Assembly (NCBI RefSeq): GCF_017963645.1
Contig: NZ_JAGMWN010000002.1
Span: 248,001 to 312,000, forward strand
Origin: Marivibrio halodurans
Lineage (GTDB): Bacteria; Pseudomonadota; Alphaproteobacteria; UBA8366; Aestuariispiraceae
DNA length: 64,000 bases
Direction of reading: 5' to 3'
Shown here: positions 19,733 to 20,719 of the stretch, piece after piece
How positions within the stretch are numbered: the stretch's first letter is position 1
Layout: each line of letters opens with the position of its first letter
Notes under the pieces: generated by a model
Databases searched by the model: none
The model's input: the letters and a program-made list of their open reading frames with translations, nothing else
Told to the model about the DNA's origin: nothing
Made by a program: the position numbers and the translations under genes

Positions 19733-19996
19733 TCAGCGCCCCCGGATATTCATCACCTCTACCGAGGCGTCGGCATGCGCGCGGGTCAGGCGGTAGAGGT
19801 CGACCGGGTCGGTCACGAATTCCTCGTGCCCCGGATAGCGCACGCGATACATCAGCCGCGCCGCCCAATCGAGTGTCCGGGCCTTCAGCGCATTCGGCAG
19901 CCGGGCCGCGCCCTCGTGCCGGGCGAAGGTGACCTCGTCGCGATAGCCCCCGTGCGGGCCGACCAGGATCAGGCTGTTCGTCATATCGTACATCAT
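19733..19996 (-). CDS. Small protein of unknown function, divergent from the XRE-type regulator
   Basis: An 87-residue protein that I do not recognise. It is soluble-looking, with NSLILVGPHGGYRDEVTFARHEGAARLPNALKAR-like segments, and has no signal peptide or membrane helix. Its reality is supported by a strong Shine-Dalgarno (AGGAGGG, 7 bases before the ATG) and by a good upstream promoter that carries an operator. Control of the promoter by a palindrome shared with the divergent regulator suggests a regulated accessory role. No function can be given. Confidence 0.65.
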   Translation of the reverse strand: MMYDMTNSLILVGPHGGYRDEVTFARHEGAARLPNALKARTLDWAARLMYRVRYPGHEEFVTDPVDLYRLTRAHADASVEVMNIRGR

Positions 19997-20078
19997 GGGA
20001 CCGCCCTCCTTTCATCGTCTGTCGCGCCGACCGGACGCGTCTCGCGACATGTTCCGGGCCGGGCGGGTGCGGTGTTTG

Positions 20079-20157
20079 GCGCACCCAGTGCGCCTTGCTG
20101 ATGAAGATATACGCGCACATTGTGCGCATTTCAAGATTAAATGCGCACCCTGTGCGC
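20079..20157. promoter_or_regulatory. Three operator palindromes GCGCAC-N3-GTGCGC
   Basis: Seen: GCGCACCCAGTGCGC (20079-20093), GCGCACATTGTGCGC (20113-20127) and GCGCACCCTGTGCGC (20143-20157), each a perfect 6-bp inverted repeat around three free bases, with centres 34 and 30 bp apart. They fill the gap between the 87-residue gene and the XRE-type regulator and have no coding role. The natural reading is cooperative binding by that regulator (inference). Confidence 0.85.
20106..20134 (-). promoter_or_regulatory. Promoter of the 87-residue gene with operator in its spacer
   Basis: On the minus strand, -35 TTGAAA (20134-20129) and -10 TATATC (20111-20106) flank a 17-base spacer that is almost exactly the middle GCGCACATTGTGCGC palindrome. 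A protein bound there would block RNA polymerase. Confidence 0.75.
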
Positions 20158-20287
20158 GCTTGCTTCATAAAACTGTCATAGAAAGCATCTATATCGGCAT
20201 TGACCGGCCGGTGGCGCTGGGCCAAATCCGAGGCGAACCGGTACATGGCCGTTACCGGGCGTCGCAACCGTGGACGAGAGTCAGGAT

Positions 20288-20719
20288 ATGGAACCCGAGG
20301 ATTTCCGGCGTTGGCGCAAGAGCCTGGGTCTGTCGCAGAAGGACGCGGCCCATGCGCTCGGCCTCAAGCGGCGGGTCGTGCAATATTACGAGAAGGGCGA
20401 GCGCGACGGGAAGGATCTGGAGATTCCGCGTTATGTGCGCCTCGCCTGCGCCGCGCTGACCGCCGGGATTCGGGATTTCCACGGCCCGCCCGGATCGGTG
20501 GGGGAAAAGGACCTGCCGAAGAAGGTGCGCAAGGGCGCGAAGAAGGCCGCCAAGGACGGCAGGGAAGAACCCAAGACCGACACCACCGACACCACCGCCG
20601 CCGTCGTCATGGCGCCGGAGGCGGCCGAGGCCGCCATCTATGACAGCGACGACGAAGAGGATGTCGTGGACGTCGTCGTGAAGGCCGACGGCCCGGTCGA
20701 AGGCGCGGACACCGCGTGA
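20288..20719 (+). CDS. XRE-type helix-turn-helix regulator with Lys-rich and acidic tail
   Basis: A 143-residue protein from the ATG at 20288 (an in-frame GTG at 20270 is an alternative). Residues about 4-60 are an XRE/Cro-type helix-turn-helix (FRRWRKSLGLSQKDAAHALGLKRRVVQYYEKGER). The rest is low complexity: a Lys-rich stretch (KKVRKGAKKAAKDG), a Thr-rich stretch and an Asp/Glu-rich end. It probably binds the three palindromes upstream and controls itself and the divergent small gene. The unusual tail could mediate oligomer formation or be a phase of disorder; nothing in it marks a known domain. It converges with msrA. Confidence 0.8.
   Translation: MEPEDFRRWRKSLGLSQKDAAHALGLKRRVVQYYEKGERDGKDLEIPRYVRLACAALTAGIRDFHGPPGSVGEKDLPKKVRKGAKKAAKDGREEPKTDTTDTTAAVVMAPEAAEAAIYDSDDEEDVVDVVVKADGPVEGADTA

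What the first reader, a model, noticed from the sequence alone, without database searches (positions are those of the whole stretch)
19733..20719. Divergent regulator - small protein pair controlled by three identical palindromes
Three GCGCAC-N3-GTGCGC sites in 79 bp, one filling the 17-bp spacer of a good promoter, next to an XRE-type regulator with an odd Lys-rich and acidic tail. The controlled 87-residue protein is unknown. The compact, strongly repressed arrangement recalls toxin-antitoxin, phage-remnant or stress switches but matches none that I recognise.
Basis: partly seen in the sequence, partly recalled or inferred. Interest (0 to 1): 0.65.

Follow-up and report, generated by a model that had tools for sequence, protein, structure and literature searches.

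The report
Aca-like repressor with small-protein regulon
A small chromosomal DNA-binding protein sits beside an unknown 87-residue protein and an array of near-identical DNA sites; the same sites recur with the same regulator in many Alphaproteobacteria, also in front of other small genes, and share their core with sites in a phage anti-CRISPR promoter, so this looks like a real, uncharacterised host regulon rather than a toxin pair or phage remnant.

Summary
Three exact GCGCAC-N3-GTGCGC sites lie at 20079, 20113 and 20143, between an XRE-type regulator (20288-20719, +) and an 87-aa protein, SP1 (19733-19996, -). The genome has only 7 exact sites. Regulator, array and SP1 recur together: of 80 named loci encoding the regulator, 40 carry paired sites upstream and 30 a divergent SP1 homologue (29 have both). 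In 43 genomes chosen because they encode it, the paired array occurs 65 times, the reversed control pattern never. In 10 of 10 family relatives with SP1 the pair sits beside msrA and ubiD, so it is vertically inherited, not a mobile toxin-antitoxin or prophage remnant. The array also precedes unlinked genes: small proteins (one in this genome), a coiled-coil protein with a CHAD protein, TPR and ClpP-like proteins. The regulator's closest solved relatives are NE0471 and the anti-CRISPR repressors Aca1, Aca2 and Aca10; the phage JBD30 acr promoter has two GCAC-N3-GTGC sites in the same layout, one in the -35/-10 spacer. Best reading: an Aca-like, probably autoregulating repressor domesticated as a host regulator of small proteins. 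What SP1 does and what relieves repression are unknown. Nothing was tested experimentally.

The parts
20079..20093 (.). Operator O1, GCGCACCCAGTGCGC
   Evidence: exact match
20113..20127 (.). Operator O2, GCGCACATTGTGCGC, fills the spacer of the SP1 promoter
   Evidence: exact match; spacer position
20143..20157 (.). Operator O3, GCGCACCCTGTGCGC, upstream of the SP1 -35 and nearest to the regulator gene
   Evidence: exact match
20129..20134 (-). -35-like hexamer TTGAAA of the SP1 promoter
   Evidence: sequence; a -35-like tetramer lies between the sites in 60 of 79 distinct arrays against 22% of shuffled gaps
20106..20111 (-). -10-like hexamer TATATC of the SP1 promoter
   Evidence: sequence
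20005..20012 (-). Ribosome-binding-site-like AAAGGAGG for SP1
   Evidence: sequence
19733..19996 (-). SP1, 87-aa protein of an unnamed alphaproteobacterial family
   Evidence: homologue divergent from the regulator in 30 of 80 named loci; dN below dS in 7 of 7 pairs; confident model
20288..20719 (+). XRE/HTH regulator (143 aa): HTH residues 1-60 plus low-complexity tail
   Evidence: Pfam HTH_3 1.1e-7; homologues; model

Best explanation
The regulator is a small, one-domain HTH repressor of the Aca/NE0471 structural group, used by the host. A dimer binds each GCAC-N3-GTGC palindrome (here extended to GCGCAC-N3-GTGCGC). Two or three dimers sit about three helical turns apart (30-34 bp) around the -35 and inside the -35/-10 spacer of the SP1 promoter and exclude RNA polymerase. 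The sites also lie upstream of its own gene, giving negative autoregulation. Elsewhere in this genome a second pair of sites represses another small protein (SP2); in relatives further unlinked genes are controlled (SP2 and other Cys-containing small proteins, a coiled-coil small protein often followed by a CHAD protein, secreted TPR and ClpP-like proteins). SP1 is therefore the most common linked target of a small regulon, not the toxin of an antitoxin. Shown by computation: conservation, co-occurrence, layout, sites at unlinked genes, likeness of protein and operator core to Aca1. Inferred: binding by this protein, the sign (repression), cooperativity, autoregulation. Unknown: the inducing signal and what SP1 does; it could be an effector or an antirepressor.
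For: Window: 3 exact sites in 79 bp, 0 of 60 simulations. Own genome: 7 exact sites, reversed control 0. Among 59 genomes (own included) the regulator is found in 18 and SP1 in 11, and each SP1 lies beside a regulator. Named genomes: 40 of 80 regulator loci have paired sites (up to 2 mismatches, 28-35 bp apart) within 450 bp upstream, against 1 pair in 564,241 bases elsewhere in the same loci. Search without the protein: 15 of 387 class genomes hold a paired array, 21 arrays in all; 15 of the 21 lie beside the regulator and 13 of the 15 genomes encode it; reversed control 4 arrays. In 43 genomes that encode the regulator: 65 arrays in 34 genomes, reversed control 0. 80 sites at SP1 loci: the central 3 positions carry 0.02-0.12 bits. 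Layout: in 55 of 79 distinct arrays the best promoter-like pair has a whole site as spacer, against 18% with gap and flanks shuffled. Targets. Solved relatives: NE0471 E 1.7e-6 and Aca1 E 0.001 by sequence; 2auw Z 10.1, rmsd 1.7 over 58; Aca10 Z 9.9, 1.1 over 54; Aca2 (7ezy) Z 9.5, 1.4 over 55; Aca1 (7c0g) Z 8.0, 2.8 over 61. JBD30 acr promoter: two GCAC-N3-GTGC sites, 0.07 expected in the 1,929-base stretch, one inside the 17-nt spacer of TTGCGA/TAATCT. Aca2 contacts R30, Q33, Y34, R39 (PMC9410881, passages) correspond roughly to R29, Q32, Y33, R39, invariant in 26 sequences.
Against: No binding or expression data. 40 of 80 named loci lack paired sites although the recognition helix is nearly the same, so the operator does not follow the helix alone; family relative G006 keeps a regulator homologue without array or SP1. 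One class genome, G147, has a full paired array near a contig end but no regulator at E 1e-10; G116 has only the loose pattern and no regulator. SP1 is missing beside 11 loci with paired sites. Many lone exact sites in other genomes lie inside genes and are probably background. The regulator's own promoter was not identified. Aca-like HTHs are one group among many similar XRE domains (401 of 995 chains have Z 5 or more). The genomes were chosen for the regulator, and many of them for its array.
Confidence: 0.72

Rival explanations
1. Type II toxin-antitoxin: SP1 is a toxin and the HTH protein its antitoxin and autorepressor.
For: Small size; HTH related in sequence or fold to HipB and MqsA antitoxins; several operators in the shared promoter region.
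Against: Divergent instead of one operon; conserved synteny in 10 of 10 relatives with SP1; the regulator occurs without SP1 in 50 of 80 named loci; the same array precedes unlinked genes; no toxin family hit for SP1.
Confidence: 0.07
2. SP1 is an antirepressor or co-regulator: it binds the HTH protein and sets the switch, and the unlinked genes are the real output. (A refinement of the best explanation, not exclusive of it.)
For: SP1 is the linked target in 30 of 80 loci; the HTH protein shows no sensor domain in the model; compact folded SP1.
Against: SP1 is replaced by other small ORFs or absent in loci that keep the array; no interaction evidence.
Confidence: 0.3
3. Prophage or phage-remnant lysogeny switch.
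For: A viral contig (L226) carries three GCAC-N3-GTGC sites before an HTH gene and a pair before a recombinase-like ORF; Aca1 is a phage protein.
Against: msrA and ubiD beside the pair in 10 of 10 family relatives with SP1; only 2 of 50,697 phage records and 4 of 72,556 plasmid records have a relative, all below 60% identity; 1 relative in the viral contig scan.
Confidence: 0.05
4. Anti-anti-CRISPR: a host Aca-like protein kept to silence acr operons of incoming phages.
For: Shared operator core with the JBD30 acr promoter; the idea is in print for Aca-like proteins (PMC9410906, passages).
Against: Cas1 is found in 3 of 14 family genomes, so 8 of the 11 with regulator and SP1 have none (the window's own genome is one of the 3); sites at host genes.
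Confidence: 0.06

Closest known systems
Aca1 of Pseudomonas phage JBD30 (acrIF1-aca1 operon)
   Same: HTH 15/33 identical; two GCAC-N3-GTGC sites, one in the -35/-10 spacer and one upstream of the -35; Aca1 structures among the best matches.
   Different: Phage gene in an operon behind an anti-CRISPR gene; sites 25 bp apart instead of 30-34; I saw no host regulon reported for it.
NE0471 of Nitrosomonas europaea (PDB 2auw)
   Same: Best sequence and fold match of the HTH (E 1.7e-6; Z 10.1, rmsd 1.7 over 58), including a shared IPxTxxLAC stretch.
   Different: The HTH lies at residues 93-141 of a 170-residue chain, so it has an extra N-terminal part; marked 'Unpublished' in a table of PMC9410881 (passages).
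'Solo Aca' proteins (PMC9410906; Aca2-like YdiL, PMC8434428)
   Same: Aca-like HTH genes on bacterial chromosomes without acr genes; autorepression suspected (passages).
   Different: No regulon was reported in the passages I saw; here a conserved operator array and unlinked targets are seen.
MqsA and HipB antitoxins
   Same: HTH fold; autoregulation by palindromes (recalled).
   Different: No toxin partner recognised; divergent layout.

Membership tests
Aca1 family (anti-CRISPR-associated) | HTH related to Aca1 | tested here: inconclusive
   Profile E 0.001, 15/33 identity, Z 8.0, rmsd 2.8 over 61; several other HTHs score alike or higher
Aca1 family (anti-CRISPR-associated) | Encoded next to an anti-CRISPR gene | tested here: not met
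   Neighbours are SP1 and msrA; SP1 has no convincing PHROG or PADLOC family. An unknown anti-CRISPR cannot be excluded
Aca1 family (anti-CRISPR-associated) | Inverted repeat within the core promoter | tested here: met
   O2 is the spacer of TTGAAA/TATATC; 55 of 79 arrays, 18% after shuffling
Aca1 family (anti-CRISPR-associated) | Represses that promoter | not testable with these tools
   needs a reporter or gel shift
Type II toxin-antitoxin | Two-gene operon of toxin and antitoxin | tested here: not met
   Genes are divergent
Type II toxin-antitoxin | Partner of a known toxin family | tested here: inconclusive
   No family above chance for 31 SP1 members; a new toxin is not excluded
Type II toxin-antitoxin | Toxicity neutralised by the partner | not testable with these tools
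   wet-lab test
Prophage repressor module | Phage genes around it | tested here: not met
   msrA and ubiD beside the pair in 10 of 10 relatives with SP1; leuA within the 20-kb stretch in 8 of 10 and directly beside SP1 in 4
XRE/HTH_3 regulators | HTH_3 domain above Pfam's cut-off | tested here: met
   32.1 bits against 23

The most novel reading that the evidence does not exclude
A host regulon written in the operator code of phage repressors: a domesticated Aca-like repressor keeps a set of small envelope and stress proteins silent, and incoming mobile elements that carry GCAC-N3-GTGC arrays (acr-aca1 operons, the repressor and recombinase promoters of L226) titrate it, or are silenced by it, so that the regulon senses or disarms invaders.
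Probability: 0.07. Interest if true: 0.85.

Novelty: new variant of a known kind. Interest (0 to 1): 0.55.

Why it matters
In one survey only 15% of 2,599 Aca-like proteins were linked to known anti-CRISPR genes, and its authors write that the significance of the large solo ones remains to be tested (PMC9410906, passages). Here one Aca-like chromosomal lineage gets a concrete predicted operator, a promoter layout and a list of host targets, testable with one gel shift and one knockout. It also picks out SP1, SP2 and a coiled-coil small protein as apparently co-regulated families without a Pfam entry.

Tried and rejected
SP1 fold: the model is confident (pLDDT 87.9), but no PDB or viral match was found (best Foldseek E 1.7 and 0.14; VIA best Z 3.2). 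This does not show a new fold. NE0471 was not among the SP1 hits shown; its N-terminal part was not compared further.

Polyphosphate idea (CHAD target): the CHAD gene of this genome has no operator, so the CHAD link is seen only in relatives.

One family for all Cys-containing small targets: rejected on re-check. The SP2 profile finds the proteins of L053, L059, L060, L065 and L400, but not the MW-type proteins of L328, L329 and L394, and a direct comparison gives no alignment; they are separate families.

Most viral hits are probably chance.

Notes on counts. One search prints '40 of 79'; the script subtracted one wrongly, and the number of loci is 80. In some searches the window itself (L000) is one of the 31 SP1 members; it is not one of the 80. 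L135 and L149 lie in one genome, several loci are near relatives, and G422 and G428 appear to be one genome (L332 and L363 show the same ORFs). The 79 arrays count overlapping pairs of a triple array separately. Site logos and paired-site counts use the window's motif with up to 2 mismatches, so the arms are conserved partly by selection; centre and flanks are not.

Literature (listings only): searches returned 0 papers, one unrelated paper each, and of the 113 papers the 8 listed were unrelated. So I found nothing on this motif or regulon in the held library; preprints and most subscription papers are not held. led to the Aca papers. That the two JBD30 repeats are the ones that Aca1 binds is recalled; the papers say that Aca1 binds inverted repeats at this promoter (passages).

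Full report
OBSERVATION. The window carries three exact GCGCAC-N3-GTGCGC sites at 20079, 20113 and 20143, 79 bp in all. First-order Markov simulations of the window hold 0.03 sites per 64 kb and none of 60 has three in 79 bp. The whole genome (4,178,930 bases, 22 contigs) has 7 exact sites; the reversed control pattern has none. On the minus strand O2 sits exactly between TTGAAA and TATATC (17 nt), followed by an AAAGGAGG and the 87-aa ORF. The strict promoter scanner reports no promoter in the region. The regulator lies on the plus strand and its conserved part starts at ATG 20288.

THE PAIR IS CONSERVED AND NOT MOBILE. Among 59 genomes searched (own included) the regulator is found in 18 and SP1 in 11, the latter all in the window's family and all beside the regulator. 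In 10 of 10 family relatives with SP1, the regulator, msrA, ubiD and a YCII-like gene follow in the same order. dN is below dS for SP1 in 7 of 7 pairs and for the regulator in 6 of 6. Relatives of the regulator are rare in 50,697 phage records (2) and 72,556 plasmid records (4). The arrays are conserved with the pair in the family while the central triplets vary.

THE ARRAY BELONGS TO THE REGULATOR. A scan of a GTDB collection with the regulator alignment gave 229 relatives, of which the best 80 were kept, among them loci of Thalassobaculum, Tistlia, Novispirillum, Pacificispira, Parvularculaceae and Pannonibacter. Of these 80, 40 have paired sites upstream (up to two mismatches, 28-35 bp apart), 30 have a divergent SP1 homologue, and 29 have both. 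Elsewhere in the same loci one pair occurs in 564,241 bases. The reverse test starts from DNA alone: GCAC-N3-GTGC, 18-23 bases, GCAC-N3-GTGC occurs in 15 of 387 class genomes, 21 arrays (reversed control: 4 arrays in 4 genomes); 15 of the 21 lie beside the regulator and 13 of the 15 genomes encode it. Of the two that do not, G116 has only the loose pattern, but G147 has a full array near a contig end, which I cannot explain. In 43 genomes picked because they encode the regulator (many because they have its array), 34 have arrays of a slightly different pattern, 65 in all, and the reversed pattern none. Against this, 40 of 80 named loci lack the paired sites.

LAYOUT. Neighbouring sites in the family's arrays are mostly 30-34 bp apart, about three helical turns; G001 has a fourth site 65 bp further on. 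Between the sites a -35-like tetramer occurs in 60 of 79 distinct arrays (22% in shuffled gaps), and in 55 of 79 the best promoter-like pair has a whole site as its spacer (18% with gap and flanks shuffled). In 31 SP1 loci 39% have a promoter score of 8 or more at a site against 3% at random positions. This is the layout of a promoter closed by proteins on both sides of the -35.

UNLINKED TARGETS. In this genome a second pair (C2:2214 and 2244, the first with one mismatch) lies upstream of a 77-aa two-Cys protein, SP2. SP2-family proteins also follow sites in G001, G003, G008 and G011. The 65 arrays include 19 away from the regulator. They precede a coiled-coil small protein in 7 (all 7 found by a two-sequence profile; in at least three of these the next gene is a CHAD protein by Pfam), a secreted-looking TPR protein in 4 (all 4 by Pfam), an MW-type Cys-containing small protein in 4, SP2 in 2, a protein related to a ClpP-like one in 1 (no Pfam hit of its own) and a mechanosensitive-channel-like protein in 1. 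SP2, the MW-type protein and the coiled-coil protein have no Pfam family. Lone sites inside genes are frequent in other genomes and are not counted. The CHAD gene of this genome has no operator.

WHAT THE REGULATOR IS. Its HTH is predicted with pLDDT about 95, the tail with 43-69. The best solved relatives are NE0471 and Aca1 by sequence and NE0471, Aca10, Aca2, SO3848, HigA2, MqsA and Aca1, among many XRE domains, by fold. The JBD30 acrIF1-aca1 promoter (L411) has GGCACACTGTGCC and GGCACAATGTGCC 25 bp apart, with TTGCGA-17-TAATCT enclosing the second. Published work on Aca1, Aca2 and Aca10 describes dimers that bind inverted repeats in the core promoter and repress it (PMC9410881, PMC8434428, PMC9410906: passages only). 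By analogy the window's regulator should repress SP1, probably itself, and SP2. Membership in the Aca1 family is not claimed: no anti-CRISPR gene is recognised beside it.

WHAT SP1 IS. A compact predicted fold of strands and helices (pLDDT 87.9) with a loose signature, P-x-L-x-Y-R-V ... T-T-D-x-V-x-V ... H-P-x-A-x-V-x-V-x-P-V (consensus), without recognised relatives in the libraries searched. Some lineages that keep the array have other small ORFs in its place. I favour an effector or an antirepressor; the data do not decide.

LIMITS. Nothing here measures binding, repression, cooperativity or phenotype. Half of the named regulator loci lack the canonical array although their recognition helix is nearly the same.

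Noticed in passing
L116 3522-3871, L124, L140, L167 (minus strand): In four Parvularculaceae-type loci examined, the gene divergent from the regulator homologue is ssrA (tmRNA), with an SspB-like gene (named by me from its sequence) beyond it, instead of SP1; the canonical operator is missing, but a TGCATTATGTGCGC-like element recurs near the regulator start.
   Followed up: partly
L226 2856-2933 and 3472-3516: A viral contig has three GCAC-N3-GTGC sites (33-34 bp apart, a TTGACA between two of them) before an HTH gene with a Lys/acidic tail, and a second pair before a tyrosine-recombinase-like ORF (named from sequence).
   Followed up: partly
L061 4111 and L062 4078: Two relatives (G011, G009) share one site upstream of a gene that looks like a glycine-betaine-type transport protein; possibly a further target or another regulator's site.
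   Followed up: no
L055 4676-4690 (own genome, contig 5): A lone exact site about 14-25 bp before an ORF for a secreted-looking multi-Cys protein without Pfam family; candidate third target in this genome.
   Followed up: no
G000 contig 17, 242376-243053: The window's genome encodes a Cas1-like protein; the CRISPR type was not examined.
   Followed up: no
L063 3987: One exact site 41 bp before a gene that looks like a Na/phosphate cotransporter in G009 (named from sequence).
   Followed up: no
G147 contig 280, 215-257 (L185): A full paired array in a class genome in which no regulator was found; near a contig end, unexplained.
   Followed up: no
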